Part shown: positions 4,228-34,493 of the stretch, piece by piece | How the letters are laid out: the number at the start of each line of letters is the position of its first letter | Numbering within the stretch: position 1 is the first letter of the stretch | NCBI GenBank assembly: GCA_035236585.1 | Contig: CP141128.1 | Coordinates: forward strand, 25,511,618 to 25,575,617 | From: Warburgia ugandensis | Taxonomy: Eukaryota > Streptophyta > Magnoliopsida > Canellales > Canellaceae | Length of the DNA: 64,000 nt | Direction of reading: 5' to 3' | Program-made: the position numbers and the translations under genes | The notes under the pieces: generated by a model | Database searches by the model: none | What the model was told of the DNA's origin: nothing | The model's input: the letters and a program-made list of their open reading frames with translations, nothing else

Positions 4228-6940
4228 TATAATGCCCCGAGCAATTTACGCTATTGAATTGGACATTCTATAGGAAATGAACTGTCTTAAATGTTTTACC
4301 GTATTTAAAAAAGTAAATGAAGGGATTTGTAAGAAAACTTCATACCATTAGATTCTACTCGAAAAATGGAATCCAACGCCTCAAAGAACGCCGAAAATGG
4401 AGTTCGTATGAAGAAGTTACGGCCGTCTAAAGATTAGGGGCAATTCTGTAAATTACACTCAAAAACGAAAAAGACAGAAAACGTAGGGGCTGTTTTCATA
4501 ACGGTACCCCGTCTTCTTCTTCCTGTAGATTTCTCTAGACGCCATAGTTTTCAGAGGTTTCTGCCACCACCAATGGTGGCACCGCCATAGCATGGCCATA
4601 AAAAGCCCTATCGCCCTCCTCTTCGAATCACAATTTTTTTGGCCATTTGAGGCTGGGGTTTTTGGCAAAAAATTGTACAACCCCCACAATGGTTTTCCCT
4701 GCACATTCTGGCCAGGCCTGAGTTGTCCCTATAGGCGGGCCACTCCCATCTCTTCACCCCGTCTTCTTCTTCCTCTGACCGCAATGGAAGTTTGGGTTTT
4801 CCCCCTTCTTCAAGGGTTTTGGCGACATATGGCTTTCAGAAAAAAAAGAGGGAGCTGCACATCGGAAGAGGGCACCGTATTGGGGTTGCCCAGGTAGGTT
4901 TTCACCCCTCTCCTTAGTTTTTCCTTCTTCCAGGCTAGATCCGTGCTAGATTTAGCATTTCCCGGCTGAAAAACACGATGAGTAAAGCCAGTTCCAACCG
5001 GCTCTGTGCGAACAAGGCGTCCCAGGGACGCCATGCTTCACGTGCACTTGGGACAGGGTCCCTAGGATGGGTTCCAGGCATGCGACAGTGCGCACACGGT
5101 CCCTGGTGCTGCCTTCGGGTGCGTACGCCACGTGGGGCACAGGTCTTGGCTCGACCGGGATGCACGGGGTGCCCTAAGACCTGAGACGTGCCATGCTGCA
5201 CTAATGATGTGTCTACGTGACGCCATCCAGTAAGCGCATCATAGCACGTCGCTTGGCCATGCATGTGAGGGTGCAAACGCGGTCCCTGGCACGGCCTTTG
5301 GGCCGCACGATGTGCAGGCATGGGTCCTGGTTCAACCAAGGCACGCACACGTCTTGGAAACCATGATGTGCGGACCTAATAAGACTATAAAATTAGGATC
5401 ATAGGACCATTTATAGAGTCTAACCATTGAAAAGTAGATCCATATTATAGGATCTAGCCTGACAATGAATTAGGTAAGGAACCATGGACCCTAAAAGGTA
5501 AATCTAGCGATATAATTTCTAAATAGATCGAAATTGATAAGGACTCCTTGTTATCCATTCATATTCAGGAGTTTATAAATGAGACCCAGGGTCGCGTTCA
5601 GTGATGAAGGACGCGACTCAAGGAGACTTCGAGGTAGGTGCTCTATCACTACTAGACTTTTAAAAAAAAAGGGCCCACGATTGTTTTGAGAATGCATGTT
5701 TTAAGTATAAGTTATATAACTTGTTTAACATGAATAAATTAAATAAATGAATTCAGCATGCACATGATAAATACATTATGCATAGACATGTTTTACGATT
5801 GCATAAATTACATGATTTGTGGTTATTGAGTTTTGAAAAATTGCATGTCCTTTAGGGTTACCAAAAGACGCTGGAGTGCCCAGAAGACGCTAGATAGGCA
5901 GTTGTGAGGGCTAAGCAGTTGTGAGGGACCCAAAGAGGACAGGTTTTGAAAAAGAGGTTTTTGCTTGTTTGATCATATATGATTTGGGCTAGTAAGCTCG
6001 TGGGCGCTACGCCGAGCGGTCTAGGGTGGCCTCCCAGCCTCTACCACTATTAGGTGGAAGGGGTACCATGCCGAAAAAAGGCATGTCCCTACGTCGACTG
6101 CATGTGGTATAGGGGGCTACCACTGGTGTCACGACACTGGGTCGATGTATCATATGCCCCGTGGAGGCTATGACCGAGTGTCCCCAGGTACCCGGGGACC
6201 ACACGGCGAGGAGCTCGTGGGCATAGTGGGCCCTATGTTTTTGAGGATTTATTTGCATTGCATATGGCATGACATGGGGTTGGTCGACCATACCATATAT
6301 CCATGACTTGGATTCAGTTGAACATCTTATGCATATCATTATGTTTATGATATATATGATACTTTCAACTTGGATTATGCGATTCTTTAAGTCGTCAGTA
6401 TTCCAATTTGACAATGGTTTTTAATATCGATATTGAACATGAGTGTTCAAACATGCACATGTTTTAAAAAGCATATGATTTTAAACAGAACATGCATTGT
6501 AAAACTGGTAGTGATAGACTCCTACTGAGTGTAGTATATACTCACCCAATCCTTAACATTTTTCAGGACAGCTCCACTCACGAGTAGAAGATGGCTCAGG
6601 AAATGTTAGTGCTACGAGCAAGTAAATAAAAAGGAGACAATTGTACATGTAAATAAACACTCTACCCTTTGGATATGTATTTGTATTTATTTATAGTTGG
6701 GCTGTGAACTGTGACTAGATAGACTTGGGAAGACATTTATGATTTCTAAAGTTTTTCAAAAAAACTATTTTGATTGATGTGAAAGCAAATGACACATGGG
6801 GTTTTCAAAATGAGTTTAAATGAAAAGATTTTTTGCTACATTGCATGGTTTTTATAAAATGGTTTTCAAATAGGGATGCATCCCGCCTTAGGAATTAGAT
6901 CTTGCATTTAAAAATGCATGGGAAAACTCGGGTCGTCACA
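4228..6940 (+). mobile_element. Solo LTR of a chromovirus, inserted in element 1 pol
   Basis: A 2713-bp LTR with no internal region. It starts TATAATGCC, a decayed form of the TGTAATGAC start of the 3' LTR at 15048, and ends GGTCGTCACA. It shares long blocks with the other LTRs, notably around 5990-6560: the segment reading GGGCGCTACGCCGAG and the one reading CTCACCCAATCCTTAAC. Its section at about 4490-5400 is its own. It interrupts the coding sequence between the Leu and Pro codons of the pre-RT region. Solo LTRs arise by recombination between the two LTRs of a full element. The block at 4344-4422 resembles the satellite monomer further right. Confidence 0.88.
4960..5345 (+). repeat. GC-rich, CpG-containing LTR segment with an imperfect ~182-bp duplication
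   Basis: This part is far richer in G+C than the rest of the LTR. The stretch from about 5089 (GTGCGCACACGGTCCCTGG) recurs in altered form from about 5271 (GTGCAAACGCGGTCCCTGG), each followed by a similar GTGC/CCTTC-GGG/GTCTTGG-type order of motifs. Short open frames on both strands here have no recognisable protein features. Confidence 0.55.
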
Positions 6941-6945
6941 GTTAC
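6941..6945 (+). repeat. Target-site duplication, right copy (GTTAC)
   Basis: Immediately follows the LTR terminus at 6940. It retains the presumed original target bases, since it reads in frame into the Pro-Pro-His codons of the interrupted pol. Confidence 0.7.
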
Positions 6946-7327
6946 CCCCACACCGAGAAATTGAGTTTACCATTGAAGTAATTCTTGGTACAACTCCAAT
7001 TTCTAAAGCACCTTATAGGATGGCCCCAGCAGAGTTGAAAGAGTTAAAAGGACAATTGCAAGAATTGTTAGAAAAAGGGTTTGTTAGACCAAGTACTTCC
7101 CTATGGGGAGCACAATGAGATTATGCATCGATTATAGAATGTTGAATAGTGTCACAGTGAAAAATAGGTATCCCTTACCTCGCATTGATGATCTCTTTGA
7201 TCAACTCCAATTTGCTAAGGTCTTTTTTGAAATTGACGTTAGATCAGGATATCATCAATTGTGTATTAAGGATGAAGACATACCCAAGTCAACATTTAGA
7301 ACTCGATATGGGCATTACGAGTTTCTA
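6946..7327 (+). pseudogene. Reverse transcriptase N-terminal part, element 1 (deleted and truncated)
   Basis: Continues the pol frame after the solo [34 protein letters not shown] and [16 protein letters not shown] are typical of Tekay/Del-like chromoviruses. About 30-35 bp is missing near 7112 compared with the homologous part of element 2 (12368-12405). That removes the VLFVKKKDG stretch and shifts the frame. The sequence then continues as [10 protein letters not shown] and [11 protein letters not shown], which keeps the first catalytic aspartate, up to GHYEF at about 7323. The YVDD-type motif, RNase H and integrase are absent, because the sequence switches to LTR DNA. Confidence 0.85.
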
Positions 7328-7897
7328 GTTGAGCATCTTATGCATATCATAGTATATGTTTATGATATCTATGTTACTTTTGACTTGGATTATGCAATTC
7401 TTTAAGTTGTTAGTATTCTATTTTGACAATGGCTTTTAATATCGATATTGAACATGAGTGTCCAAATATGCACATGGTTTAAAACATAGCATGCATTGTA
7501 AAACTCGTCGTGATAGACTCCTACTTAGTATAGTGTATACTCACCCAATCCTTAACATTTTTCAGATACAAGTAAACACTTAAGGACAGGATACACCCGT
7601 GATAGAGAACATCCAAATTAAGTATAAGTAAGTAAACCCCTACCTTATATTTTAGTGAATGTTACTTGATTGTAGTTACTCTCTGTAGCTGGGCCTGTGA
7701 CTAACACTTTCTTGGGAATAGAGTTGGTTTAAAACTATGCCATGGCTATATGATTTGAAAATGTGTTTTAACACTCGAGGTTTTATATGAAAGATTACTT
7801 TTCAAAACAAAATATTTTCATGCATTTCAAATTTCTAAAGCAAGAGATCTCGCCCCTTTTTATGAAATTTGCATCATATGAAACCCGGGTCGTCACA
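7328..7897 (+). mobile_element. Remnant of the 5' LTR of element 2 (last ~570 bp)
   Basis: From AGTTGAGCATCTTATGCAT to the terminal CGGGTCGTCACA this matches 17168-17729, the end of the 3' LTR, with few differences (roughly 95% by eye, mostly transitions plus a 4-bp indel near 7622). A primer site follows directly, so this is the 3' end of a 5' LTR whose first ~2.1 kb is gone. The exact left edge is uncertain by about 10 bp because GAGTT occurs in both joined sequences. Confidence 0.88.
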
Positions 7898-7899
7898 GT

Positions 7900-7911
7900 T
7901 GGTATCAGAGC
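7900..7911 (+). other. Primer binding site (initiator Met-tRNA type), element 2
   Basis: TGGTATCAGAGC again, two bases after the LTR terminus at 7897. It is followed by an untranslated leader at 7912-8022 that resumes at 10620-10635, interrupted by the inverted solo LTR. Confidence 0.88.
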
Positions 7912-8017
7912 CCGGTTTGACGTTACTCACAGCCTAGTTATGAGGAGAATAACTTATAATCAAGTTTCATCCATGAAAGATTAAGGGGTAATATGATAAC
8001 ACATACTAAGGTCCTAT

Positions 8018-8022
8018 AAATT
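8018..8022 (+). repeat. Target-site duplication, left copy (AAATT)
   Basis: Pairs with GAATT at 10615-10619, four of five bases identical. Confidence 0.6.
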
Positions 8023-10614
8023 TGTGACGACCTGGGTTTTAAATGATGCAAATTTCATAAAAAGGCGAGATCTCTTATTTTAGAAATATGAAATGCATGA
8101 AAATCTTTTGTTATGAAAAACAATCTTTCGTATAAAACCTCGAGTGTCAAAACACATTTTCAAATCATATAGCCATGGCATAGTTTTAAATCAACTCTAT
8201 TCCCAAGAAAGTCACAGCCCCATTTACAGAGAGTAAATACAATCAAGTAACATTCAGTGAAAGATAAGGTAGGGGTTTACTTACTTGTACTTAATTTAGA
8301 TGTTCTCTGTCGTGGGTCTGTTGCGGATATATCCTGTCCTTAAGTTTTTACTTGTATCTGGAAAATATTAAGGATTGGGTGAGTACACACTATACATGGT
8401 AGGAGTCTATCACTACTAGTTTTACAATGCATGCTACATTTTAAACCATATGTCCTTTAAACCATGTGCATGTTTGATCACTAATCTTGAATATTGATAT
8501 TAAAATCCATTGTCGAAATAGAATACTGACGACTTAAAGAATCGCATAATCCAAGTCTAAAGTAACATAGATATCATAAACATAATGATATGCATAAGAT
8601 GCTCAACTGAATCGAACTCATGGATATATGGTATGGTATGGTCGACCATCCTCATGTCATACCATATGCAATGCAAGTAAATCCTCAAAACCATAGGCAC
8701 ACTATGCCCATGACCTCATCGCCGTGTGGTCCTTGAGTACCTAGGTACTCTCGGTCATAGCCTCCATGGGGCATATGACACTTCGACCTAGTGTCGTGAT
8801 ACCAATGGTAGTCCTCTGTACCACATGCAATCGAAGTAAGGACATACCTTTTTGGCATGGTACCCTTTCCACCTAATAGTGGTAGAGGCTGGGAGGCCAC
8901 CTTGAACCTCTCGGCATAGCGCCCACGAGCTTACTACTCCAAATCATATATGAACAAACAGGCAGAAACCTCTTTTTCTAAATATGTCCTCTTTGGGTCC
9001 CTCACAACTGCCTACCGAGTGTCTTTTGGGCACTCCTGCGTCTTTTCGTAACCCTCAAGGATATGCAATTTTTCAAAACTCAATAATCACAAATCATGCA
9101 ATTTATGCACTTATTTATTGTAAATAATACAATTTATGCAATCATTTACAAAACATGTATGCAATGCATAAAATTTACTCTTGCTAGTATCGCATTCAAG
9201 GTCATAACCCTGCCTAAAAGCCTGTTAGCTCTCTTTGGCCCACCCTCATCAGCCCGCCCTCATTGGCCAAGGCCACACTTATCATGCAGACAAGAATCAT
9301 TTTTCAAAACATATCTATGCATAATGTATTTTTCATATGCATGCTAAATTCATTTACGAAATCAATTAATGCTAAATAGGTCATGTAACTTAAAACTTAA
9401 AACATGCATTCTCAAATCAATCATGAGTTCTTTTTTTGAAAGTCTAGTGGCGATAGAGCACATACCTGGTTTGATCGCGTTAATCCCCTTGTCCTCGTAC
9501 GTTTCTGGTCATGGTTTAGGGACAAAGGTTAGCTTCACCTATTTTTATAGGTTCTAGAATAGTTTTCCTCTCTACTTAGGTATTATAGGTTCATTCCCAT
9601 GCCTAAGGGCCTCCTAAGGACCCTAACTGGGCCTTGATATAGTCAGGTTTGCAAAGGTTTAGTGGCCCTGTGCCACTACCACTGTTTAAGGGTCATGCCA
9701 ACCTTAAATAGGGATTGATCAGATATTTTATGGTTTGGATGTATTTGCATCATCAATACGGACACAACGCCTTTCGTGGTACCTCAATCGGAGTCCTAGA
9801 ACTCATGGTATAGGCATTTTAGCATTAAGAGTACATAGAAGGCCCACAAGGTGCGTCCGCCGATGCACCGGGCCTTCCGCCCGTTCTTTCGTTTGCAGCC
9901 GCATCCACGGACACTCCTTGTTTGACCCTATCAAACCAGTACACCCTAGGCACTTGCCCTGGGTCTATTGTGGCTCCCTGGAGCTCCATTTTGCATGGTT
10001 TTGCATGCAAAAACTTAGGGGAATTCAACCTAAGACTGAGGGGGAGATGGGTTTGGAGGGTTTAAGGCGTACCTGGTTCATGGCTGGGTATTTTTTCGCA
10101 GTTTTCTACTCTTGCACACTGCTCCCAGATGGGTTTTTCCCAGGGTTTTGGGCTGCCATTGGAGGTGCCCAAGAGCTCTATTCATAGAGCTTGAAGAGGG
10201 TTCTAGAGGGGGCTTCTACTGCCATGGAATGGCGATGGAGAAACCTCCAGAATGGCAGTGGTTTCTCCCATGCACACTGCCATTCTAGAAACCTCCAGTA
10301 TGTTTGGGAAGAAGAGGGTGCCCGTATCAAAACGTGTCCCTATTTTCTCAGGCCAATTCGTTTCTAAATTTAATTACCATTTTGCCCTTGAACTTCAAAG
10401 GACCATAACTTGCTCATTTTAACTCCGTTTTGGGTGATTCTGGTCTTGTTGGATTCCTTCTTTTGAGACACACTTGATGGTACCATTCTAAGGAGCAAAT
10501 ATCTAAGTCTAGTCAGGATGAACAGTGAAATGACCAAAATACCCTTATCTCCAAAAAGTGAACTTTTCATTACCAACATGGGATTTCATGATTACCATAA
10601 ATGAAGTCATTACA
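8023..10614 (-). mobile_element. Inverted solo LTR in the leader of element 2
   Basis: On the minus strand it runs from a TGTAATGAC-like start (seen here as GTCATTACA ending at 10614) to a GTCGTCACA end (seen as TGTGACGAC at 8023), about 2592 bp. It parallels the 3' LTR at 15048-17729 almost throughout, for example 8880-8940 against 16855-16915 reversed and 9560-9800 against 16120-16360 reversed. It carries no internal region and has a near-perfect 5-bp target duplication. It separates the primer site of element 2 from its gag. Open frames on either strand inside it show no protein motifs. Confidence 0.87.
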
Positions 10615-10619
10615 GAATT
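10615..10619 (+). repeat. Target-site duplication, right copy (GAATT)
   Basis: Directly abuts the outer end of the inverted LTR. It has one mismatch (A/G) to 8018-8022. Confidence 0.6.
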
Positions 10620-10635
10620 ACCTTGTGATTTATAG

Positions 10636-11347
10636 ATGCCTATAAAGAAAGTAAGTGATGCTCCAAGACCTGAAGCCCCACTAGTGGACTCCACTAGGCC
10701 AGGCAATGGGATGGCTGAATTATTCCAGCGTTTCCTACAGCATATGGAACAATACATGAGTAATCAACAAACCCAAACCCCTGCCACATGAGATCCTTCC
10801 CCTGATAAAGCAATAGATAGGACTGATGTTCAGTTAAAAAGGTTTCAGAAATTAGCTCCCTCATTCACAGGAGAAGATGAAGCATCTACAGCTGAAAAAT
10901 GGTTAATTGATATTGAAAAGATATTTAAAGCCATGAACATAGATGAAGAAAGAAAAGTACCCGTGGCCACGTTTGTGTTTAGGGGAGAGGCTACCTTTTG
11001 CGGGGAAACAACGGAAAGGACTTATTTTGACCAGCAAGAAACATTAGGATGGGAAGAATTTAAAATGGTCTTTAATGACAAATATTATCCTAAACACATA
11101 AGAAAATAGAAGGAAAAAGAATTTATGGACTTAGAACAAGGAAACATGACTGTCCACTAGTATGAAAATAAATTCATCAACTTCTGAAGATTTGCACCAC
11201 ATGCTTGTGCTGATGAGGAAGACGTGGCGGAAAGATTTGTAGATGGGCTCAACCCAGGACTCAGGAATAGAGTTCTAGGTTTCCAACCTTCCATCGTAGC
11301 CAAAGCCATAGAGATGCCAAAGGAATCAGGCAATAAAGGAAACTAAG
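10636..11347 (+). pseudogene. gag: Gag capsid region, element 2 (five in-frame stops)
   Basis: Starts at ATG 10636 (MPIKKVSDAPRPEAP). Reading one frame gives a Retrotrans_gag-like region containing AEKWLIDIEKIFKAM, WEEFKMVFNDKYYP, FMDLEQGNMTV and ERFVDGLNPGLRNRVLG. That frame is interrupted at 10789 (TGA), 11107 (TAG), 11158 (TAG), 11185 (TGA) and 11344 (TAA). Each stop is one C-to-T change from CGA, CAG or CAA, as expected from deamination of methylated cytosine. A one-base shift follows at about 11347-11360, before the nucleocapsid. No functional Gag can be made. Confidence 0.85.
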
Positions 11348-11359
11348 AACACCAACACC

Positions 11360-11575
11360 ATGAGAAATAAAGGAAAGAGACCATTTCAGTCATCTGGACC
11401 CAGGCCACCTTTCGAGAAGCCGTTTGAAAACAAAGGAAGAAGACCAGACTGGAAGACATGCCCTAGGTGTAAGAGGAATCATTCAAGCAAACCATGTCCC
11501 ACTTTCAACATCACTTGCTATACTTGTGGAGAATTAGGACATCTTGCTAGGAATTGTCCTGAAAGGAAAGTTTAA
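11360..11575 (+). pseudogene. Gag nucleocapsid (zinc knuckle) segment, element 2
   Basis: A short open stretch, frameshifted relative to the capsid. It has a basic Pro/Arg/Lys-rich start, a CPRC...HSSKPC partial cysteine motif, and a full CCHC knuckle, CYTCGELGHLARNC, at 11516-11557. It ends at TAA 11573, which is one C-to-T change from CAA. Similarity to the element 1 linker, including the GRVFAL stretch, continues beyond the stop. Confidence 0.85.
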
Positions 11576-11936
11576 GAGCGTAAAGAAGATCGGGTTCCAA
11601 AGAGGCAAGGACGTGTCTTTGCCCTCACTTCGAGTCAAGCTTAGGCTTCAAATGCAGTAGATGAAGGTATTCTTTCTATCTATGATACACCTGCTCAAGT
11701 TCTATTCAATACAGGCTACACTCATTCTTTCATATCTTGGGAGTTTGCATCAACCTTGGACATTATAGCACAGGACCTGGACTTCACTCTAGAAGTCATG
11801 ACTGCTGTAGGCCAGGCACTTCCCACCTATTTCTTATCTCCAGGATGTCCTCATTTTGGTCAAAGATCATTTGCTACATGCCAATCTTATTCACTTAGAT
11901 ATGAATGACTTTGACGCCATCCTAGGGATGGACTAG
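11576..11936 (+). pseudogene. Retropepsin-like protease, element 2 (catalytic Asp lost)
   Basis: Continues from the nucleocapsid through TAG 11642-11644. The active-site stretch reads VLFNTGYTHSFIS: the catalytic aspartate codon at 11708-11710 is AAT (Asn), a G-to-A change from the GAT present in element 1, and the following Ser is Tyr. A frame change occurs between 11710 and about 11880. The later ILGMD-LA motif has a TAG (11934-11936) where element 1 has Trp, explained by a G-to-A change. The protease is dead both by mutation and by broken frame. Confidence 0.85.
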
Positions 11937-13358
11937 CTAGCCCTTCATCAAGCCTTTGTTGATTGTCGCCAGAAACGTGTCACTTTTACCCTACCTAATG
12001 GAGACACTTTCACCCTCCAAGGAAGAAAGGATTATTCTGGAGCGTGTGTTATTTCTTCCATGAAAGCAATTAAGCACATTGCTCAGGGATGTCCCTTCTT
12101 CTTGGCCAAGATTGAATCTGACAAGAGTCCCCAACCAAAGCTAGAAGATGTCGAGGTAGTCCAAGAATTTCCTGACGTATTCCCTGAGGACTTACCAGGT
12201 CTACCCCCACCAAGAGAAATTGAGTTTACCATTGACTTTATACCCGGTACTTCCCCTATTTCCAAAGCTCCTTACCGAATGGCTCCTGTAGAACTAAAAG
12301 AATTGAAGACCCAGTTACAAGAACTACTTGACAAAGGGTTCATATGGCCTAGGGTATCTCTGTGGGGAGCTTCAGTCCTTTTTGTTAAGAAAAAGGATGG
12401 CTCCAAGAGATTGTGCATAGACTATCGGATGCTAAATAGGGTCACCATTATGAATAAGTACCCCCTTTCCCAAATTGATGATCTTTTCGATCAACTTCAG
12501 TCAGCCAGAGTCTTCTCTAAGATTGATCTACGATCCGGCTACCATCAACTTCGAGTTAGAGAAGAAGATATCCCCAAGACAACCTTCAGGACTCGATATG
12601 GCCATTATGAATTCAGAGTGATGTCCTTAGGTTTAACTAATGGTCCAGCTGTGTTTATGGACCTCATGAATAGGGTGTTCAAGGAGTACTTAGACAAATT
12701 CATCATAGTGTTTGTAGATGATATCTTGATATATTCAGAAACTCCTGAAGACCATAAGGAACATCTAAGGATAACATTAAGCACCCTGCGAGCACACAAG
12801 TTATATGCAAAATTCAGTAAGTGTGAGTTTTGGCTGGAAAAGGTTAATTTCTTAGGACACATTATTTCTCAAGATGGCATGGCAGTTGACCCTGCTAAGT
12901 TTGAATCAGTACAGAAATGGGAAAGACCTATGACAGTCACAGAAATCAGAAGCTTCTTAGGACTTGCCGGATATTACAGGAGATTCATCGAGGGTTTTTC
13001 ACGAATTGCTTTACCTTTAACTAAGCTGACCAGGAAAGACACAAGATTTGAATGGACTGATAAATGTGAGGAAAGCTTCAAGGAACTAAAGAGAAGGTTA
13101 ACTACAGCACCTGTCCTTACCTTACCTTCAGGAAGTGGTGGATTTGAGATATACAGCGATGCCTCACAACAAGGATTAGGCTGCATACTTATGCAACGTG
13201 GGAAGGTAATTGCTTATGCTTCTCGGCAACTCAAGAAGCATGAAGTCAATTACTTGACCCATGACTTGGAATTAGCGGCCATAGTCTTTGCCTTGCGAAT
13301 CTGGAGACATTATCTATATGGGGAAAAGTTTGAAGTTTTCACAGATCATAAGTCTTAA
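11937..13358 (+). pseudogene. pol: Reverse transcriptase and RNase H, element 2
   Basis: The longest surviving pol frame. Numbering from ATG 12060 (an internal Met, not a true start), the linker [12 protein letters not shown] is at 39-50. The RT palm has Asp156 in [11 protein letters not shown] and the catalytic FVDD at 218-221. The connection LGHIIS...[11 protein letters not shown] follows at about 265-309. RNase H keeps Asp367 (YSDAS), Glu404 (HDLELA) and Asp429 (FTDH). It copies element RNA into DNA and degrades the RNA strand. RT and early RNase H are close to the family norm. One oddity is GLTNGP, where GLTNAP is usual. The frame ends at TAA 13356 through a small indel inside the TDHKS-L motif. 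Confidence 0.93.
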
Positions 13359-14481
13359 ATATATCTTTTCCCAACAAGATTTAAACATGCGACAAAGAAG
13401 ATGGATGGAATACTGAAAAGGCTATGACTTCTCCATTCATTATCACCCTGGAAAAACTAATGTGGTAGCTGATGCATTAAGTAGAAAAACCAAAGGGATG
13501 TGTGCAAGTTTATTTACTAAGAGATGGAAGCTATTCCAAGAAGTAATAACGTGGAAACCAGACATGAGTAAGTGCAAGATTAGTATGGCAGGTCTAACGA
13601 TAAAGTCGGCTGTTATTAAAATGGTTAAGCAAGTACAAGCTTTAATAGGAAAACTAGGGTTTACTAAAGGGGAGGATGGTAGCGTTTACATGCAAGGAAG
13701 ATTAGTGATACTGACTAATGAAGAATTAAGACAAGAATTCTTAAAAGAAGCTCATAGGTCTAAGTATGCTATACACCCGGGAGGAACTAAGATGTATCAA
13801 GACTTAAAGAGACAATATTGGTGGGATGGTATGAAAAGAGGCATGGGAGAATTTGTGGCAAAGTGTCTAACATGTCAACAAGTAAAGGCTGAACATCAAA
13901 GACCTGCGGGATTGTTACAACCCCTTGAGTTACCCGAATGGAAATGGGATCATATGACCATGGACTTCATCGTAGGATTACCCAAGACCTCTAAGGGTCA
14001 TGACATGATATCGGTAATTGTTGATAGATTGACTAAGACAGCCCATTTCCTTCCTATACGCCATACCCAATCCACTAACAGCCTATCTCAGCTATACATT
14101 AAAGAGATAGTGAGTTTACATGGCATACCCCTTAGTATCACTTCAGATAGGGATAGTTGCTTCACTTCACAACTCTGGAAGTCCATCCAAAAATCCTTAG
14201 GATCTTCCTTGAACTTTAGCATAGCCTTCCATCCACAGACTAATGGACAGTCAAAGCGCACGATCCAGATAATAGAGGATATGCTGAGAGCTTGTGCCCT
14301 CGATTGGAAGCAGAGCTGGGATGAAAATTTGCTGCTAGTGGAGTTTGCATACAACAACAACTTTCAATCAAGCATTGGCATGGATCTGTATGAGGCGCTC
14401 TATGGGAGACCCTGTCGATCACCCACCAGTTGGAGTGAAGTTGGAGAGTCTAGGGTGCTACAGTCCGAGCTGGTGGAGTAA
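13359..14481 (+). pseudogene. RNase H tail and integrase core, element 2 (catalytic Glu changed to Lys)
   Basis: After the indel the coding frame resumes (KYIFSQQDLNMRQRRW, TGA at 13414, then HYHPGKTNVVADALSRK). Numbered from codon 13462, the integrase zinc domain has His98, His105, Cys135 and Cys138. The core has Asp168 (MDFIVGLP) and Asp229 (TSDRD). The third acidic residue of DD35E, expected at 265, is Lys (codon 14254-14256, AAG). That is a G-to-A change that abolishes catalysis in this enzyme class. YAIHPGGTKMYQDLK and CQQVKAEHQRPAGLLQPL are typical of Tekay/Del-like chromoviruses. The stretch ends at TAA 14479. Confidence 0.92.
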
Positions 14482-14996
14482 TGTGCCAAGAAGGTGAAAC
14501 TCATAAAGAAATGCCTCCTCACAGCTCAAAGCTGGCAAAAGAGCTATGCTGATCAAAGGAGGAGACCATTAGAATTCGACATAGGAGAGTACGTTTTCCT
14601 GAAGATATCTCCCATTAAAGGAGTTATTCGGTTTGGTATCAAAGGCAAGCTTAGTCCACGTTACATAGGACCTTTGGAAATCTTGGAGAAAGTGGAAAAG
14701 TGGCCTGCAGGATCGCACTACCCCCTCAGCTATCTGAAGTGCATAACATATTCCATATATCTATGCTAAGGAGGTACGTGCCTGACCCTGCTCATGTCAT
14801 CACCCAGGTACCCATGGAGTTGATGGAGGATCTCAAGCTAGAGACGAGACCAATCGAGATTTTGGATCGTAAGAGTAAGAAGCTGCAGAACAAAGACATA
14901 CACTTAGTTAAAGTTTTGTGGAGAAATGCGCTCATGGAAGAAGAGACTAGGGAACTGGAGCCAGAAATGTGAGAAAAGTACCCCGAGATCTTTTGA
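14482..14996 (+). pseudogene. Integrase C-terminus with chromodomain, element 2
   Basis: Coding similarity continues past the stop: SYADQRRRPLEF, then the GPY/F-type stretch KGKLSPRYIGPLEILEKV up to about 14697. A one-base loss shifts the frame at about 14690-14700. The frame then reads ALPPQLSEVHNIFHISMLRR, followed by a chromodomain (about 14850-14969) with IEILDRKSKKLQNK and LVKVLWRN. The position usually occupied by Trp near its end is Arg. A TGA at 14970, one change from CGA, precedes the natural end at TGA 14994. In chromoviruses this domain is thought to guide insertion into heterochromatin by binding modified histone tails. Confidence 0.87.
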
Positions 14997-15034
14997 CTGT
15001 ATATATTGTAGAATTTTGGGGGCGAAATTCCCCT

Positions 15035-15047
15035 AAGGGGGTAAGAA
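15035..15047 (+). other. Polypurine tract, element 2
   Basis: A purine-rich run (AAGGGGGTAAGAA, one T) directly before the 3' LTR start at 15048, in the position where plus-strand DNA priming occurs. Confidence 0.7.
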
Positions 15048-17729
15048 TGTAATGACTCCATTTTTATAACCTTGAAATCCCATGTTCATTGTTTGAGATA
15101 AGGGTATTTTGGTCATTTCACTGTTCACTCTGACTAGACCCAAAAATTTTGTCCTTAGAATGGTACCCTTAGGTGTGTCTTGGAAAAAGGAATCCAACAA
15201 GATTGGAATCACCCAAAACGGAGTTAAAATGAGCAAGTTATGGCCCTTTGAAGTTCAAGGGCAAAATTATAATTAAATTTAAAACGAATTGGCCTAAGAA
15301 ATCAGGGACTCGTTTTGATACGAGCACCCCCTTCTTCCCAAACATACTGCATCACTGACATTCTAGAACGTCGGTGTACAAGGGGAAAACCACCACCATT
15401 CTGGAGGTTTCTCCACCGCCATTCCTTGGCTGTGGAAACCCCCCTCCAGAACCCTCCTTAAGCTCTATAAATACAGCTCTTGGGTGCTTCCAATGGCATC
15501 CCAAAACCCTGAAAAAAACCAGACTTGGAGTTGCAAGCAAGAGGAGAAATCGTGAAAAATACCCAACCACGACCCAGGTACGCCTTAAACAACTCCAAAC
15601 CCATCTCCCCCTAAGTCTTAGGTCGATTGTCCCTAAGTTTCTGCATGAGAAACCATGCAAAATGGGGCTCTAGGGAGCCACAACAGACCCAGGGTAGGTG
15701 CCTGGGGTGTTCTGGTTCAACAGGGTCGAACTAGGGCATCCCGAGGATGCCCAGGTCACCACAGAACCAAAACGCACCCAGTGTGTTAAAGGGAAACTGA
15801 TGAGCACGTCCGTGGACGCGCTCTCAAATGAGGAAAGGGGTGGAGGCTCGGTGCAAAGGCGGACGCACCCTGTGGGGCGCACACCGCTGACATGGGAGGC
15901 GTTAGCATCTCGGATGCCCGCCTAGTGTGGACCTGCGATGGTGGCGCCGCGTAGAACGCACAGGCTGATGATGCTCGGGAGCATGCGACTGCATGTGTGG
16001 GCCGGTCGCCATTCAACCTAGACGCAGGTGTGTCTCGGGAGCAGTGATGCAGGGCCCGTTTTGGTCCTTCTATGTATTCTTAACACTAAAATACCCATAA
16101 CTTGAGTTCTACGACTATGATTGAGGCGCTACGAGAGGTGTTGTGTCCATATCGACAGCGCAGACACACCCAAACCATAAAATACCTGACCAAGCCCCTA
16201 TCTAAGGCTAGCATGACCCTTAAACCATGATAGTGGAGCGGGCCCACTAAACCTTTGCAAACCTAACTATACCAAGGCCCAGTTAGGGACCTTAGGAGGC
16301 CCTTAGGCATGGGAATGAACCCTTAATGCCTAAGTAGTGAGGTAAACTATTCTAGAACTTATAGAAATATGCCAAGCCAACCTTTTTCCCCTAAACCATG
16401 TCCAGGAACGTACTAGGACAAGGGGACTAGCGCGATCAAACTAGGTAGGTGTCCTATCGATACTAGACTTTTAAAAAGAAACCATGATACTTTGAGAATG
16501 CATGTTTTGAGTCATGGTTGCTTTTCTAGTGCATGTTTTAAGTTTTTAAGTTACATTTCCTGTCTTTATGCGTATATCATATAAACTTATGTTACATCCT
16601 TATGCACATGACCTATGTAGCATGAATTGATTTCATAAATGAACTTAGCATGCATATGAAAAATACATTGCGCATATATTGCCAAGACATGTGTTACATG
16701 CATAGATATGTTTTGAAAAAGGATTCTTGTCTGCATGATACATGCATAGACATGTTTTGAAAAAGGGTTCTTGTCTGCATGATACATGCATAGACATGTT
16801 TTGAAAAAAAAAGGTTCTTGCCTGCTTGATAGTATATGATTTGGGCTAGTAAGCTCGTGGGCGCTATGCCGAGAGTTTTGGGGTGGCCACCCAGCCTCTA
16901 CCACTATAGGTGAAAAGGGTACCACGCCAAAAAGGCTTGTCCTTACTTCAATTGCTGTGGTAAATGAGGACTACCACTGGAGGTGTCACAACACCCGTCG
17001 AAGTGTCATATGCCCCGTGGAGGCTATGACTGAGAGTCCCTAGGTACCCGGGGACCACACGATGCTGAGGTCGTGGGCATAGTGTGCCCTATGTTTTTCA
17101 GGATTTACCTACATGCATATGGCATGACATGAGTATGGTCGACCATAGATCCATGAGTTGGATTCAGTTGAGCATCTTATGCATATCATAATATATGTTT
17201 ATGATATCTATGTTACTTTTGACTTGGATTATGCGATTCTTTAAGTCATTAGTATTCTATTTTGACAATGGCTTTTAATATCGATATTGAACATGAGTGT
17301 CCAAATATGCACATGGTTTAAAACATAGCATGCATTGTAAAACTAGTAGTGATAGACTCCTACTGAGTATAGTGTATACTCACCCAATCCTTAACATTTT
17401 TTAGATTCAAGTAAACACTTAAGGACAGGATACACCTGTGATAGAGAACATCCAAATTAAGTAAGTAAACCCCTACCTTATCTTTTAGTGAATGTTACTT
17501 GATTGTAGTTACTCTCTGTAGCTGGGGCTATGACTAACACTTTCTTGGGAACAGAGTTGATGTAAAACTATGCCGCGGCTATATGATTTGAAAATGTGTT
17601 TTGACACTCGTGGTTTTATACGAAAGATTGCTTTCCAAAAGAAAAGATTTTCATGCATTTCATATTTCTAAAGCAAGAGATCTCGTCTTTTTTAAGAAAT
17701 TCGCATCATGTGAAACTCGAGTCATCACA
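15048..17729 (+). mobile_element. 3' LTR of element 2
   Basis: It starts TGTAATGACTCC right after the polypurine tract and ends GTCATCACA at 17729, 2682 bp. Its last ~560 bp match the 5' LTR remnant at 7328-7897. It contains a GGAATCCAAC block at 15189-15198 that also occurs in the solo LTRs and in the satellite monomers, a GC-rich middle (about 15690-16060), and a 44-bp tandem repeat. It is followed at once by satellite DNA, starting inside a monomer. Confidence 0.93.
16695..16829 (+). repeat. 44-bp tandem repeat, three copies, inside the 3' LTR
   Basis: Copies begin at 16695, 16739 and 16783 with TACATGCATAGA. Each carries TGTTTTGAAAAA followed by TTCTTG(T/C)CTGC. The third copy has a longer A-run. 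The corresponding part of the solo LTR at 4228-6940 (near 5943) has a single copy, so the amplification is specific to this LTR or its subfamily. Confidence 0.85.
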
Positions 17730-19740
17730 TTACTTAATTAAAAGTGAAAAAAAAAACATAGAAACCTCATGGGTCATTTTTGATATTGGCAAGGCTCACC
17801 GGTGTAACAACCTTAAAACTTAACTATTCCATGATTAGGTTATGAGCTTTCAACAAGTATATCTTTTAATTGTATGATAATTTAGAATTCAAATGGAAAC
17901 CATTAGATAATGCACATAAAATGGAATCCAACGACCCAAGGAATGCAAAAAATAGAGTCAGTATGAAGAAGTTATGGGACTTCAAAGTCAGGGCTCTTTC
18001 ATTAATTAAAAGTGAAAAAAAAACATAGAAACCTCATGGGGCAATTTTGATATTGGCCATGCTTACTGGTGTAACAACCTTAAAATTTCACTATTCCATG
18101 ATCAGGTTACGACTATTTAAGAAGTATATCTTTTAATAGCATAATAATTTCAATTTAATCTTGAAACCATTAGATAGTACTCAGAAAATGGAATCCAACC
18201 AGCCAAGGAATGCGAAACATAGAGTTCGTATGAAGGACTTAAGGGACCTCAAAGTTAGAGCTATTTCATTAATTAAAAGTGAAAAGAAAAACATAAAAAC
18301 CTCAAGGAGCCATTTCGATAATGGCAGGGCTCGCTGGTGTAACAACCTTAATATTTTAGTATTCCATGACCAGGTCATGAGCTTTCAAAAAGTATATATT
18401 TTAATTGCATAATAATTTGGAATTAAAACTAAAACCATTAGATAATACTCAGAAAATGTACTCCAACGAGCTAAGGAATGCTGAAAATAGTGTCCGTATG
18501 AAGGAGTTGTGGGACTTCAAAGTCGGGGCTATTTCATTAATTAAAAGTGAAAAAAAAAACATAAAAACCTCATGGGTCAATTTTGATATTGGTGAGGCTC
18601 ACCAGTGTAACAACCTTAAAATTCTACTATTCCATGATCAGGTTACGAGTATTTAAGGAGTATAACTTTTAATAGCATATTAATTTGACATTAAAGCTAA
18701 ATCCATTAGATAGTACTCAGAAAATGGAATCCAACCAGCCAAGGAATGCGAAACATAGAGTTCGTATGAAGGACTTAAGGGACCTCAAAGTTAGAGCTAT
18801 TTCATTAATTAAAAGTGAAAAGAAAAACATAAAAACCTCAAGGAGCCATTTCGATAATGGCAGGGCTCGCTGGTGTAACAACCTTAATATTTTAGTATTC
18901 CATGACCAGGTCATGAGCTTTCAAAAAGTATATATTTTAATTGCATAATAATTTGGAATTAAAACTCAAACCATTAGATAATACTCAGAAAATGTACTCC
19001 AACGAGCTAAGGAATGCTGAAAATAGTGTCCGTATGAAGGAGTTGTGGGACTTCAAAGTCGGGGCTATTTCATTAATTAAAAGTGAAAAAAAAAACATAG
19101 AAACCTCATGGGTCAATTTTGATATTGGCGAGGCTCACCAGTGTAACAACCTTAAAATTCTACTATTCCATGATCAGGTTACGAGTATTTAAGGAGTATA
19201 ACTTTTAATAGCATATTAATTTGACATTAAAGCTAAATCCATTAGATAGTACTCAGAAAATGGAATCCAACCAGCCAAGGAATGCAGAAAATAGAGTTCA
19301 TATGATGGAGTTATGGGACTTCAAAGTCAGGGCTATTTAAGTAATTAAAAGTGAAAGAAAAAACATAGAAACCTCGAGGAGGCATTTTGATAATGGCAGG
19401 GCTCGCTGGTGTTGCAACCTTAATATTTTAGTATTCCATGACCAGGTCATGAGCTTTCAAAAAGTATATATTTTAATTGCATAATAATTTGGAATTAAAA
19501 CTCAAACCATTAGATAATACTCAGAAAATGGACTCCAACGTGTTAAGGAATGCTGAAAATAGAGTCCATATGAAGGAGTTGTGGGACTTCAAAGTCAGGG
19601 ATATTTCATTAATTAAAAGTGAAAAAAAAAACATAGAAACCTCATGGGTCAATTTTGATATTGGCAAGGCTCACCGATGTAACAACCTAAAAATTTATAT
19701 ATTCCATGATCAGGTTACGAGTATTTAAGAAGCATATCTT
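17730..19740 (+). repeat. Left edge of the array: diverged monomers
   Basis: About 7.5 monomers, the first one partial. They differ visibly from the core: both A-like and B-like monomers keep GTGTAACAACCTTA, where core B has GTTGCAACC, and A-like copies read ATGGGTCAATTTTGAT. A 536-bp dimer is present twice almost identically (about 18150-18680 and 18686-19216). Edge divergence is expected where unequal exchange rarely reaches. Confidence 0.85.
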
Positions 19741-22700
19741 TTAATAGCACAATAATTTCAAATTAAAGCTGAAACCATTAGATAGTACTCAAAAAATTGA
19801 ATCCAACAAGCCAAGGAACTCAGAAAATAGAGTTCGTATGAAGGAGTGATGGGACTTCAATGTCAGGCCTACTTCATTAATTAAAAGTGAAAAAAAGACA
19901 GAGAAACCTCGAGGAACCATTTCGATAATGGCAGGGCTCGCTGGTGTTGCAACCTTAATATTTTACTATTCCATGATCAGGTCATGAGGTTTCAAGAAGT
20001 AGATCGTTTAATTGCATAATAGTTTGGAATTGAAACACAAAACCATTTGGTAATACTCAGAAAATGGAATTCAACGACCCAAGGAATGCAGAAAATAGAG
20101 TTTGTATGAAGGAGTTGTGCGACTTCAAAGTCAGGGCTCTTTCATTAATTAAAAGTGAAAAGAAAAACATAGAATCCTCATGGGGCAATTTTGATATTGG
20201 CCAGGCTTACCTGTGTAACAACCTAAAAATTTATATATTCCATGATCAGGTTACGAGTATTTAAGAAGCATATCTTTTAATAGCACAATAATTTCAAATT
20301 AAAGCTGAAACCATTAGATAGTACTCAAAAAATTGAATCCAACAAGCCAAGGAACTCAGAAAATAGAGTTCGTATGAAGGAGTGATGGGACTTCAATGTC
20401 AGGCCTACTTCATTAATTAAAAGTGAAAAAAAGACAGAGAAACCTCGAGGAACCATTTCGATAATGGCAGGGCTCGCTGGTGTTGCAACCTTAATATTTT
20501 ACTATTCCATGATCAGGCCATGAGGTTTCAAGAAGTAGATCGTTTAATTGCATAATAGTTTGGAATTGAAACAGAAACCATTTGGTAATACTCAGAAAAT
20601 GGAATTCAACGACCCAAGGAATGCAGAAAATAGAGTTTGTATGAAGGAGTTGTGCGACTTCAAAGTCAGGGCTCTTTCATTAATTAAAAGTGAAAAGAAA
20701 AACATAGAATCCTCATGGGGCAATTTTGATATTGGCCAGGCTTACCTGTGTAACAACCTGAAAATTTATATATTCCATGATCAGGTTATGAGTATTTAAG
20801 AAGCATATCTTTTAATAGCACAATAATTTCAAATTAAAGCTGAAACCATTAGATAGTACTCAAAAAATTGAATCCAACAAGCCAAGGAACTAAGAAAATA
20901 GAGGTCGTATGAAGGAGTGATGGGACTTCAAAGTCAGGCCTACTTCATTAATTAAAAGTGAAAAAAAGACAGAGAAACCTCGAGGAACCATTTCGATAAT
21001 GGCAGGGCTCGCTGGTGTTGCAACCTTAATATTTTACTATTCCATGATCAGGCCATGAGGTTTCAAGAAGTAGATCGTTTAATTGCATAATAGTTTGGAA
21101 TGGAAACAGAAACCATTTGATAATACTCAGAAAATGGAATTCAACGACCCAAGGAATGCAGAAAATAGAGTATGTATGAAGGAGTTGTGCGACTTCAAAG
21201 TCGTGGCTCTTTCATTAATTAAAAGTGAAAAGAAAAACATAGAATCCTCATGGGGCAATTTTGATATTGGCCGAGGCTTACTGTGTAACAACCTGAAAAT
21301 TTATATATTCCATGATCGGGTTATGAGTATTTAAGAAGCATATCTTTTAATAGCACAATAATTTCAAATTAAAGCTGAAACCATTAGATAGTACTCAAAA
21401 AATTGAATCCAACAAGCCAAGGAACTCGAGAAAATAGAGTTCGTATGAAGGAGTGATGGGACTTCAATGTCGGGCCTACTTCATTAATTAAAAGTGAAAA
21501 AAGACAGAGAAACCTCGAGGAACCATTTCGATAATGGCAGGGGCTCATTGGTGTTGCAACCTTAATATTTTACTATTCCATGATCAGGCCATGAGGTTTC
21601 AAGAAGTAGACCGTTTAATTGCATAATAGTTTGGAATTGAAACAGAAACCATTTGGTAATACTCAGAAAATGGAATTCAACGACCCAAGGACTGCAGAAA
21701 ATAGAGTTTGTATGAAGGAGTTGTGCGAATTCAAAGTCAAGGCTCATTCATTAATTAAAAGTGAAAAGAAAAACATAGAATCCTCATGGGGCAATTTTGA
21801 TATTGGCCAGGCTTACCTGTGTAACAACCTGAAAATTTATATATTCCATGATCAGGTTATGAGTATTTAAGAAGCATATCTTTTAATAGCACAATAATTT
21901 CAAATTAAAGCTGAAACCATTAGATAGTACTCAAAAAACTGAATCCAACAAGCCAAGGAACTCAGAAAATAGAGTTCGTATGAAGGAGTGATGGGACTTC
22001 AATGTCAGGCCTACTTCATTAATTAAAAGTGAAAAAAAGACAGAGAAACCTCGAGGAACCATTTCGATAATGGGAGGGCTCGTTGGTGTTGCAACCTTAA
22101 TATTTTACTATTCCATGATCAGGTCATGAGGTTTCAAGAAGTAGATCGTTTAATTGCATAATAATTTGGAATTGAAACAGAAACCATTTGCTAATACTCA
22201 GAAAATGGAATTCAAAGACCCAAGGAATGCAGGAAATAGAGTTTGTATGAAGGAGTTGTGCGACTTCAAAGTCAGGGCTCTTTCATTAATTAAAAGTGAA
22301 AAGAAAAACATAGAATCCTCATGGGGCAATTTTGATATTGGCCAGGCTTACCTGTGTAACAACCTGAAAATTTATATATTCCATGATCAGGTTATGAGTA
22401 TTTAAGAAGCATATCTTTTAATAGCACAATAATTTCAAATTAAAGCTGAAACCATTAGATAGTACTCAAAAAATTGAATCCAACAAGCCAAGGAACTCAG
22501 AAAATAGAGTTCGTATGAAGGAGTGATGGGACTTCAATGTCAGGCCTACTTCATTAATTAAAAGTGAAAAAAAGACAGAGAAACCTCGAGGAACCATTTC
22601 GATAATGGCAGGGCTCGCTGGTGTTGCAACCTTAATATTTTACTATTCCATGATCAGGCCATGAGGTTTCAAGAAGTAGATCGTTTAATTGCATAATAGT

Positions 22701-23254
22701 TTGGAATTGAAACAGAAACCATTTGGTAATACTCAGAAAATGGAATTCAACGACCCAAGGAATGCAGAAAATAGAGTTTGTATGAAGGAGTTGTGCGAAT
22801 TCAAAGTCAAGGCTCTTTCATTAATTAAAAGTGAAAAGAAAAACATAGAATCCTCATGGGGCAATTTTGATATTGGCCAGGCTTACCTGTGTAACAACCT
22901 GAAAATTTATATATTCCATGATCAGGTTATGAGTATTTAAGAAGCATATCTTTTAATAGCACAATAATTTCAAATTAAAGCTGAAACCATTAGATAGTAC
23001 TCAAAAAATTGAATCCAACAAGCCAAGGAACTCAGAAAATAGAGTTCGTATGAAGGAGTGATGGGACTTCAATGTGAGGCCTACTTCATTAATTAAAAGT
23101 GAAAAAAAGACAGAGAAACCTCGAGGAACCATTTCGATAATGGCAGGGCTCGCTGGTGTTGCAACCTTAATATTTTACTATTCCATGATCAGGCCATGAG
23201 GTTTCAAGAAGTAGATCGTTTAATTGCATAATAGTTTGGAATTGAAACAGAAAC

Positions 23255-23522
23255 CATTTGGTAATACTCAGAAAATGGAATTCAACGACCCAAGGAATGC
23301 AGAAAATAGAGTTTGTATGAAGGAGTTGTGCGACTTCAAAGTCAGGGCTCTTTCATTAATTAAAAGTGAAAAGAAAAACATAGAATCCTCATGGGGCAAT
23401 TTTGATATTGGCCAGGCTTACCTGTGTAACAACCTGAAAATTTATATATTCCATGATCAGGTTATGAGTATTTAAGAAGCATATCTTTTAATAGCACAAT
23501 AATTTCAAATTAAAGCTGAAAC
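23255..23522 (+). repeat. Representative monomer A, 268 bp
   Basis: A typical core I monomer A, running from CATTTGGTAATACTCAG to AAAGCTGAAAC. It holds an EcoRI-type GAATTC (about 23278), TTAATTAA, and the ATGATCAGGTTATG segment. Confidence 0.85.
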
Positions 23523-23789
23523 CATTAGATAGTACTCAAAAAATTGAATCCAACAAGCCAAGGAACTCAGAAAATAGAGTTCGTATGAAGGAGTGATGGG
23601 ACTTCAATGTCAGGCCTACTTCATTAATTAAAAGTGAAAAAAAGACAGAGAAACCTCGAGGAACCATTTCGATAATGGGAGGGCTCGTTGGTGTTGCAAC
23701 CTTAATATTTTACTATTCCATGATCAGGCCATGAGGTTTCAAGAAGTAGATCGTTTAATTGCATAATAGTTTGGAATTGAAACAGAAAC
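23523..23789 (+). repeat. Representative monomer B, 267 bp
   Basis: A typical core I monomer B, running from CATTAGATAGTACTC to TTGAAACAGAAAC. It holds CTCGAG, TTAATTAA and the ATGATCAGGCCATG segment. It aligns along its whole length to monomer A at roughly 70-75% by eye. Confidence 0.85.
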
Positions 23790-32700: not shown

Positions 32701-34225
32701 GACTTCAATGCCAGTCCTACTTCATTAATTAAAAGTGAAAAAAAGACAGAGAAACCTCGAGGAACCATTTCGATAATGGCAGGGCTCGCTGGTGTTGCAA
32801 CCTTAATATTTTACTATTCCATGATCAGGTCATGAGGTTTCAAGAAGTAGATCGTTTAATTGCATAATAGTTTGGAATTGAAACAGAAACCATTTGGTAA
32901 TACTCAGAAAATGGAATTCAACGACCCAAGGAATGCAGAAAATAGAGTTTGTATGAAGGAGTTGTGCGACTTCAAAGTCAGGGCTCTTTCATTAATTAAA
33001 AGTGAAAAGAAAAACATAGAATCCTCATGGGGCAATTTTGATATTGGCCGGGCTTACTGTGGAACAACCCGAAAATTTATATATTCCATGATCAGGTTAT
33101 GAGTATTTAAGAAGCATATCTTTTAATAGCACAATAATTTCAAATTAAAGCTGAAACCATTAGATAGTACTCAAAAATTGAATCCAACAAGCCAAGGAAC
33201 TCAGAAAATAGAGTTCGTATGAAGGAGTGATGGGACTTCAATGTCAGGCCTACTTCATTAATTAAAAGTGAAAAAAAGACAGAGAAACCTCGAGGAACCA
33301 TTTCGATAATGGCAGGGCTCGCTGGTGTTGCAACCTTAATATTTTACTATTCCATGATCAGGTCATGAGGTTTCAAGAAGTAGATCGTTTAATTGCATAA
33401 TAGTTTGGAATTGAAACAGAAACCATTTGGTAATACTCAGAAAATGGAATTCAACGACCCAAGGAATGCAGAAAATAGAGTTTGTATGAAGGAGTTGTGC
33501 GACTTCAAAGTCAGGGCTCTTTCATTAATTAAAAGTGAAAAGAAAAACATAGAATCCTCATGGGGCAATTTTGATATTGGCCAGGCTTACCTGTGTAACA
33601 ACCTGAAAATTTATATATTCCATGATCAGGTTATGAGTATTTAAGAAGCATATCTTTTAATAGCACAATAATTTCAAATTAAAGCTGAAACCATTAGATA
33701 GTACTCAAAAAATTGAATCCAACAAGCCAAGGAACTCGAGAAAATAGAGTTCGTATGAAGGAGTGATGGGACTTCAATGTCGCCTACTTCATTAATTAAA
33801 AGTGAAAAAAAGACAGAGAAACCTCGAGGAACCATTTCGATAATGGCAGGGCTCGCTGGTGTTGCAACCTTAATATTTTACTATTCCATGATCAGGTCAT
33901 GAGGTTTCAAGAAGTAGATCGTTTAATTGCATAATAGTTTGGAATTGAAACAGAAACCATTTGGTAATACTCAGAAAATGGAATTCAACGACCCAAGGAA
34001 TGCAGAAAATAGAGTTTGTATGAAGGAGTTGTGCGACTTCAAAGTCAGGGCTCTTTCATTAATTAAAAGTGAAAAGAAAAACATAGAATCCTCATGGGGC
34101 AATTTTGATATTGGCCAGGCTTACCTGTGGAAGAACCTGAAAATTTATATATTCCATTATCAGGTTATGAGTATTTAAGAAGCATATCTTTTAATAGCAC
34201 AATAATTTCAAATTAAAGCTGAAAC

Positions 34226-34493
34226 CATTAGATAGTACTCAAAAAATGGAATTCAACGACCCAAGGAATGCAGAAAATAGAGTTTGTGTGAAGGAGTTGT
34301 GCAACTTCAAAGTCAGGGCTCTTTCATTAATTAAAAGTGAAAAGAAAAACATAGAATCCTCATGGGGCAGTGTTGACATTGGCCAGGCTTACCTGTGGAA
34401 GAACCTGAAAATTTATATATTCCATTATCAGGTTATGAGTATTTAAGAAGCATATCTTTTAATAGCACGATAATTTCAAATTAAAGCTGAAAC
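34226..34493 (+). repeat. Extra monomer A2 (A-A2-B trimer)
   Basis: Opens with the B-type CATTAGATAGTACTCAAAAA, then switches to A-type ATGGAATTCAACG. It reads GGCAGTGTTGACATTGG. It is followed by a B with a marked haplotype: GCACGATAATTTC just before it, TACTAAAAAAATTG and GAGATCGTATG within it. Confidence 0.85.

What the first reader, a model, noticed from the sequence alone, without database searches (positions are those of the whole stretch)
4228..18244. The satellite monomer looks related to the 5' end of the chromovirus LTRs beside it
Seen directly: solo-LTR bases 4344-4422 align without gaps to satellite bases 18166-18244 at 62 of 79 positions (hand count), including ACCATTAGAT, TGGAATCCAAC and AGTTCGTATGAAG. 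The 3' LTR of element 2 has the same block at 15189-15243 (GGAATCCAAC ... GAGTT ... AAGTTATGG) with identical internal spacing. The inverted LTR has it near 10448. The order is also conserved. LTRs start TGTAATGAC or TATAATGCC and reach GGAATCCAAC about 140-150 bp later. Edge satellite monomers have TGTAACAACC and reach GGAATCCAAC about 120-130 bp later. A further match lies between: ACCGTATTTAAAAAAGTA in the LTR against ACGAGTATTTAAGAAGTA in the satellite. Inference: a ~267-bp segment from the start of an LTR was amplified into a satellite. The reverse (an LTR that captured satellite) or a shared older module is possible.
Basis: partly seen in the sequence, partly recalled or inferred. Interest (0 to 1): 0.88.

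Follow-up and report, generated by a model that had tools for sequence, protein, structure and literature searches.

The report
Satellite DNA born from retrotransposon LTR
A 267-bp tandem repeat on a plant chromosome is, over nearly its whole length, an amplified relative of the first stretch of a retrotransposon's long terminal repeat, a new and well-documented example of mobile DNA turning into satellite DNA.

Summary
The 79-bp block matches at exactly 62 of 79 positions; the best block in 1000 shuffles has 44. A profile of the satellite hits 30 of 30 LTR-B copies fetched by similarity to the solo LTR (99.7-121 bits); 2400 shuffled LTR modules reach at most 6.2 bits. The homology is wider than the block. 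In a third family found elsewhere in the genome ("C"), a module inside the LTR matches the satellite at 76.5-82.6% over 183-251 bp in 11 copies, in three of them to profile position 254-256 of 265. In the family-D copy L076 the match begins at TGTAACAACC, an LTR-type terminus. So the monomer corresponds to about the first 265 bp of an LTR, joined head to tail. The nearest LTRs are C, not the A and B LTRs beside the array. The 40 scored places of B and of C lie on 11 of 14 contigs each; the 100 listed of 415 satellite places lie on two. With LTR outgroups the satellite falls as one clade inside LTR diversity, though a tree placing it outside is not rejected. LTR to satellite is well supported; how the first junction formed is inferred. 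The kind is known.

The parts
17730..64000 (+). Satellite array, 267/268-bp monomer, dimeric higher-order repeat (535 bp); continues to about window coordinate 72589 outside the window
   Evidence: TRF period 268; profile hits; identity at lag 1 0.781, lag 2 0.952
4228..6940 (+). Solo LTR of family B, inserted in the pol region of an older Ty3-type element; 5-bp target duplication GTTAT (4223-4227) / GTTAC (6941-6945), 4 of 5 bases
   Evidence: sequence; 40 scored relatives on 11 contigs
4326..4505 (+). Satellite-homologous module in the solo LTR (profile positions 78-255, 106.6 bits)
8023..10614 (-). Inverted LTR of family A
   Evidence: self-comparison with 15049-17729; ends read by eye
10319..10485 (-). 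Satellite-homologous module in the inverted LTR (28.1 bits)
15049..17729 (+). 3' LTR (family A) of element 2; abuts the satellite at profile position ~193
15036..15048 (+). Polypurine-type tract before the 3' LTR
   Evidence: read by eye
15146..15321 (+). Satellite-homologous module in the 3' LTR (32.1 bits)
12060..14478 (+). Element 2 reverse transcriptase/RNase H and integrase pieces (Ty3 type)
   Evidence: Pfam RVT_1 3.8e-36, RT_RNaseH_2 2.1e-31, Integrase_H2C2 1.1e-17, rve 2.6e-7 just below its cut-off
14655..14969 (+). C-terminal integrase piece; some relatives carry a chromodomain
   Evidence: SH3_Tf2-1 6e-11; 6 of 39 relatives list PF00385; no Pfam chromodomain hit in the piece itself

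Best explanation
The satellite descends from the 5' end (U3 start) of a Ty3-type, probably chromoviral, LTR close to today's dispersed family C. A copy of roughly the first 265 bp, beginning at the TGTAAC terminus, became joined head to tail and then grew by unequal exchange into arrays with their own higher-order repeats on at least two chromosomes. Shown: homology over nearly the whole monomer, register with an LTR-type terminus in family D, dispersed LTR families against local arrays, one satellite clade inside LTR diversity (favoured, not proved), and tandem duplication of LTR starts inside existing LTR copies. Inferred: the founding junction, either by an LTR inserting into a related LTR some 270-290 bp from its start or by duplication of LTR starts through template switching or recombination, followed by unequal crossing-over. 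A and B LTRs now found in and beside the arrays are taken as later arrivals.
For: Profile scores: 30 of 30 B copies fetched by similarity to the solo LTR hit at 99.7-121 bits; 6 of 6 C copies picked by DNA similarity to L064 hit at E 2e-53 to 2e-41. In the control set: A 28-44 bits (10 of 10, but 8 of these were found by the profile itself), B 66-114 (13 of 13), C module 2 88-170 (11 of 11), D 96-100 (2 of 2); 2400 dinucleotide shuffles of 48 modules max 6.2. Best pairwise identities to the satellite, C: L089 82.6%/224 bp, L073 81.7%/224, L085 81.7%/202, L074 80.8%/203, L088 80.8%/250, L087 79.5%/244, L079 79.0%/224, L090 77.8%/248, L077 77.7%/251, L080 77.0%/183, L086 76.5%/251; D 76.4% and 75.5%; B 67.6% (solo 66.5%); A 61.6%. 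L077, L086 and L088 match to profile position 254-256 and run on into GGCACCCC or GGAACCCC, as A and B LTRs do in similar form at that place. D copy L076 aligns from TGTAACAACC, with a short purine run before it. LTR-C behaves as an LTR family: of 40 scored places on 11 contigs, 12 include the polypurine tract, 24 begin within 2 bases of the LTR terminus (query 12-14) and 4 between, as 3' versus 5'/solo LTRs should. Satellite pattern: 415 places, control 0; of the 100 listed, 96 on C3 and 4 on C7; the C7 piece is the same satellite with the same junction, 86%. Tree: S 100/99 one clade; S+C2+A+B excluding D 95/90 with LTR outgroups. LTR copies with tandem starts: C modules 1+2, L080 96-bp x2, L054 89-bp x3.
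Against: The tree does not reject the satellite as sister to all ingroup LTRs (p-AU 0.355), and S+C2 has only 87/71 support. No related species could be searched, so polarity rests on outgroup LTRs, distribution and parsimony. No LTR copy above 82.6% identity was found, so the direct parent is not in hand. Of 27 LTR starts fetched with the tract-plus-TGTAAC pattern only 9 hit the profile at E below 1e-11; the other 18, among them three picked for a D-like start and one for a C-like start, hit weakly or not at all. C module 1 scores -1.3 to 30 bits and so overlaps the shuffles. The last ~12 bp of the monomer before TGTAAC align only loosely with the LTR and could be flanking DNA. The satellite pattern was made from the window's own monomers, so diverged arrays are missed, and 315 of 415 places were not listed. 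Candidate totals (5450 for B, 3469 for C) are first-look figures of which 40 each were scored; they may include other repeats, for C the satellite itself.
Confidence: 0.82

Rival explanations
1. Reverse direction: the satellite is older and an ancestral LTR captured about one monomer as its U3 start, after which LTR families diversified.
For: A tree with A+B+C2+D as one clade apart from the satellite is not rejected (p-AU 0.355).
Against: Families E-H and C module 1, LTR starts with weaker similarity, fall outside and are LTRs too. B and C are on 11 contigs each among 40 scored places, the satellite on two in the 100 listed places. The monomer edge coincides with an LTR-type terminus in family D.
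Confidence: 0.08
2. Round trip: an A/B/D-like LTR gave rise to the satellite, and family C later captured a satellite monomer as its second module.
For: C module 2 is the LTR segment closest to the satellite; C's upstream module 1 is only 59-65% similar to it in five copies and groups with other LTR families; module 2 begins at profile position 5 to 12 in the 11 copies.
Against: In L077, L086 and L088 module 2 runs at its 3' end into the GGCACCCC/GGAACCCC motif that A and B LTRs have in similar form at that spot and the satellite lacks, so it looks like the native LTR start. The satellite clade holds no C rows (100/99).
Confidence: 0.07
3. Both descend from an older shared module (for example a non-autonomous element) with no direct LTR-to-satellite step.
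For: The direct parent LTR was not found; best identity 82.6%.
Against: The 13 non-array hits of the profile in 204 kb lie behind an LTR-type start; no free-standing module was seen there.
Confidence: 0.03

Closest known systems
CRM1TR / CRM4TR of maize (PMC3648361, abstract and passages seen)
   Same: Tandem repeats entirely derived from a Ty3/gypsy centromeric retrotransposon, including LTR; arrays interrupted by later LTR insertions; nested insertion and illegitimate recombination discussed as origin.
   Different: Those monomers span LTR plus UTR, start inside the LTR and are 97-98% identical to the parent; here the monomer matches the LTR start alone, is ~80% identical to the nearest LTR found, and is 267 bp long.
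Ogre-derived satellites of Lathyrus sativus and PisTR-A of pea (PMC7004042, PMC9659126, passages seen)
   Same: Short tandem duplications inside dispersed retrotransposon copies, long arrays elsewhere; abnormal strand transfer or illegitimate recombination proposed for the first duplication.
   Different: Those come from the 3' untranslated region of Ogre elements; here the duplicated stretch lies just inside the LTR, from its first bases.
LTR-derived satellites such as MALREP and RPCS (table passage of PMC9659126); Sobo of potato (title seen in reference lists, content recalled)
   Same: Satellite monomers derived from LTR sequence.
   Different: Other organisms and LTR families; register to the LTR terminus was not compared here.

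Membership tests
LTR-retrotransposon-derived satellite DNA | Long head-to-tail arrays of one monomer | tested here: met
   About 54.9 kb continuous array, 207 profile hits; dimer HOR
LTR-retrotransposon-derived satellite DNA | Monomer homologous over its length to part of a retrotransposon | tested here: met
   C LTRs match profile 5/7/9 to 254/256 of 265 in three copies, D 1-195 and 3-208; the last ~12 bp are undecided
LTR-retrotransposon-derived satellite DNA | Parent elements dispersed while arrays are local | tested here: met
   only 40 scored places per LTR family and the first 100 of 415 satellite places were listed
LTR-retrotransposon-derived satellite DNA | Parent older than satellite (related species) | not testable with these tools
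   no plant relatives held for this genome; within-genome trees only
Ty3/gypsy retrotransposon (element 2 in the window) | RT-RNaseH before integrase; polypurine tract; 5-bp target duplications | tested here: met
   RT, RNaseH and integrase of element 2; the gag hit of that call lies in the neighbouring element 1; tract read by eye; target duplication seen for the B solo LTR only, 4 of 5
Chromovirus | Chromodomain after integrase | tested here: inconclusive
   No Pfam chromodomain hit in the piece itself; 6 of 39 relatives carry PF00385
Tekay clade | Placement in an RT/INT tree with named clades | not tested

The most novel reading that the evidence does not exclude
In this LTR lineage the first 50-270 bp of U3 is a module prone to tandem duplication and exchange: LTRs repeatedly gain a second start upstream of the old one (C dimers, D double start, 89-bp and 96-bp repeats), and the satellite is the one case in which this process ran away. 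The window would then show a cycle in which LTR starts make satellites and the same lineage later inserts into them, with new LTR starts landing near the old junction (L009 ~12 bp before, L022 6 bp after).
Probability: 0.3. Interest if true: 0.65.

Novelty: new member of a known kind. Interest (0 to 1): 0.46.

Why it matters
Where satellites come from is often hard to tell, because they diverge fast and parents vanish. Here cousin LTR families are still widespread in the same genome, the monomer register can be read against an LTR terminus, and LTR copies with incipient tandem starts exist, so steps from mobile element to satellite can be compared in one assembly.

Tried and rejected
Chance or low complexity: rejected by shuffles. 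Parentage by the neighbouring LTRs: rejected, as C and D are closer. An LTR 'in register' at L009 looked at first like a founding junction; the flanks GGTGG/GGCGG (4 of 5) point to an ordinary solo-LTR insertion ~12 bp before satellite position 1. L085 and L086, 8.4 kb apart, looked like the two LTRs of one element, but at 86% identity and with different 3' parts this is not shown. The first tree had 16 LTR-B rows on the wrong strand and was discarded; the trees keep 13 of its 32 B rows. I tried to read the ~12-bp linker as LTR sequence (CTCAC..GG); too short to decide. A search for family A across the genome did not complete, so A's distribution is unknown. Listings of paper searches (one found none) showed no paper that I recognised as this satellite, but the species is unknown to me and the library holds open-licence papers only.

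Full report
What was checked. The window is C3:25511618-25575617 of a 1.12-Gb genome in 14 contigs. Gapped alignment extends it to 177 columns for the solo LTR and 257 for the 3' LTR, with scores beyond the best of 200 shuffles each.

Satellite. TRF gives a 268-bp unit from 17734 to the window end. With flanks the array runs to about window coordinate 72589, 207 profile hits; further arrays lie left of the window and from about 88.6 kb to at least 134 kb, with a run of N at about 90.8-91.3 kb. The window array is a dimeric higher-order repeat (identity 0.781 at lag 1, 0.952 at lag 2); the array at 91-134 kb has another pattern with peaks at lags 3, 7 and 15.

LTR starts hit by the satellite. 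A profile of the array (265 positions) run over the window and 14 flanking loci (204 kb) gave, apart from array monomers, 13 hits, all behind an LTR-type start by eye. Two local families are seen: A (TGTAATGACTCC...) and B (TGTAATGCCC...). The 30 B copies fetched by similarity to the solo LTR hit at 99.7-121 bits, 30 of 30. The solo LTR at 4228-6940 is B; the inverted and 3' LTRs are A.

Closer LTRs elsewhere. A pattern for polypurine tract plus TGTAACRACCTT found 390+372 places (control 18+18), 100 of them listed. I chose 20 of the 100 for variety and then 7 more for C-like or D-like starts. 6 of the 20 and 3 of the 7 hit the profile at E below 1e-11; the other 18 had weak or no hits. The best belong to one family, C, whose LTR carries two tandem start modules: module 1, weakly similar, and module 2, satellite-like. 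Six more C copies, chosen from the 40 scored places, hit 6 of 6. Family D (two copies) has a short LTR start, a repeated purine run, and a satellite-like module; in L076 the alignment begins at TGTAACAACC.

Register. D places satellite position 1 at an LTR-type terminus. Three C copies (L077, L086, L088) match to profile position 254-256 (GATATTGG). There the LTRs go on with GGCACCCC or GGAACCCC, while the satellite has about 12 more bases and starts again at TGTAAC. Whether those bases are LTR or flanking DNA is open.

Controls. 2400 dinucleotide shuffles of 48 LTR modules gave at most 6.2 bits; real values are 28-44 (A), 66-114 (B), 88-170 (C module 2), 96-100 (D), and -1.3 to 30 for C module 1, which overlaps the noise at its low end. 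Part of these rows were found with the profile itself (8 of 10 A rows, two of 13 B rows, five C and both D copies), so the independent figures are those (30 of 30; 6 of 6).

Tree. 95 rows: the satellite is one clade (100/99), A+B one (100/98), C2 one (88/98); S+C2 87/71; S+C2+A+B without D 95/90, rooted on other LTR starts. On the earlier 83-row set, S+C2 held together was not rejected (p-AU 0.656), nor was S outside all of A+B+C2+D (p-AU 0.355). So nesting is favoured, not proved.

Distribution. A satellite-specific pattern has 258+157 matches (control 0+0). Of the 100 listed, 96 lie on C3 (25.3-25.6, 34.2, 53.9-54.1 Mb) and 4 on C7 (55.4 Mb); the other 315 were not listed, and diverged arrays, such as the one at 24.88 Mb on C3, are not among the 100. 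The C7 piece is the same satellite with the same junction. Families B and C show 5450 and 3469 first-look candidates, the 40 scored of each on 11 contigs; family A could not be searched.

Mechanism. Shown inside LTRs: tandem starts in C, a 96-bp duplication in L080, an 89-bp triplicate of tract plus LTR start in L054, and a double start in D. Inferred: the same tendency, or an LTR inserted in a related LTR about 270-290 bp from its start, made the first dimer; unequal exchange did the rest. LTRs now abut or interrupt the arrays at several positions.

Known ground. Passages seen show LTR- and UTR-derived satellites are an established kind: CRM1TR/CRM4TR (PMC3648361), Ogre-derived arrays (PMC7004042), reviews PMC9659126 and PMC12628747. 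Clade features of chromoviruses were seen in passages of PMC6317226. This case adds a member whose monomer is the LTR start itself.

Noticed in passing
L022:1-9300 and L084 (C3:24.8586-24.869 Mb): A block [LTR end - satellite dimer - LTR start] occurs twice 7.64 kb apart, 98.6% identical over at least 2698 bp, with the dimers identical over 530 bp.
   Followed up: partly
L019:4496-7952 with flanks: A short satellite array is flanked by inverted LTR-like copies (82%), the junctions at profile positions 190 and 191.
   Followed up: no
L054 (C1:30462491-30462950): Polypurine tract plus LTR start repeated three times with an 89-bp period.
   Followed up: no
window 7327-8608: Large imperfect palindrome, 82% over 1331 bp, made by a direct LTR 3' part facing the inverted LTR.
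   Followed up: no
L009:6300-6370 (C3:25.488 Mb): At the left array edge an inverted B-type LTR is cut near LTR position 262 and abuts the satellite just before its position 1.
   Followed up: partly
window-based coordinate 72590 (outside the window, C3:25584207) and L022:60: Two LTRs, one inverted, join the satellite directly after GTGTAAC, six bases into the monomer.
   Followed up: no
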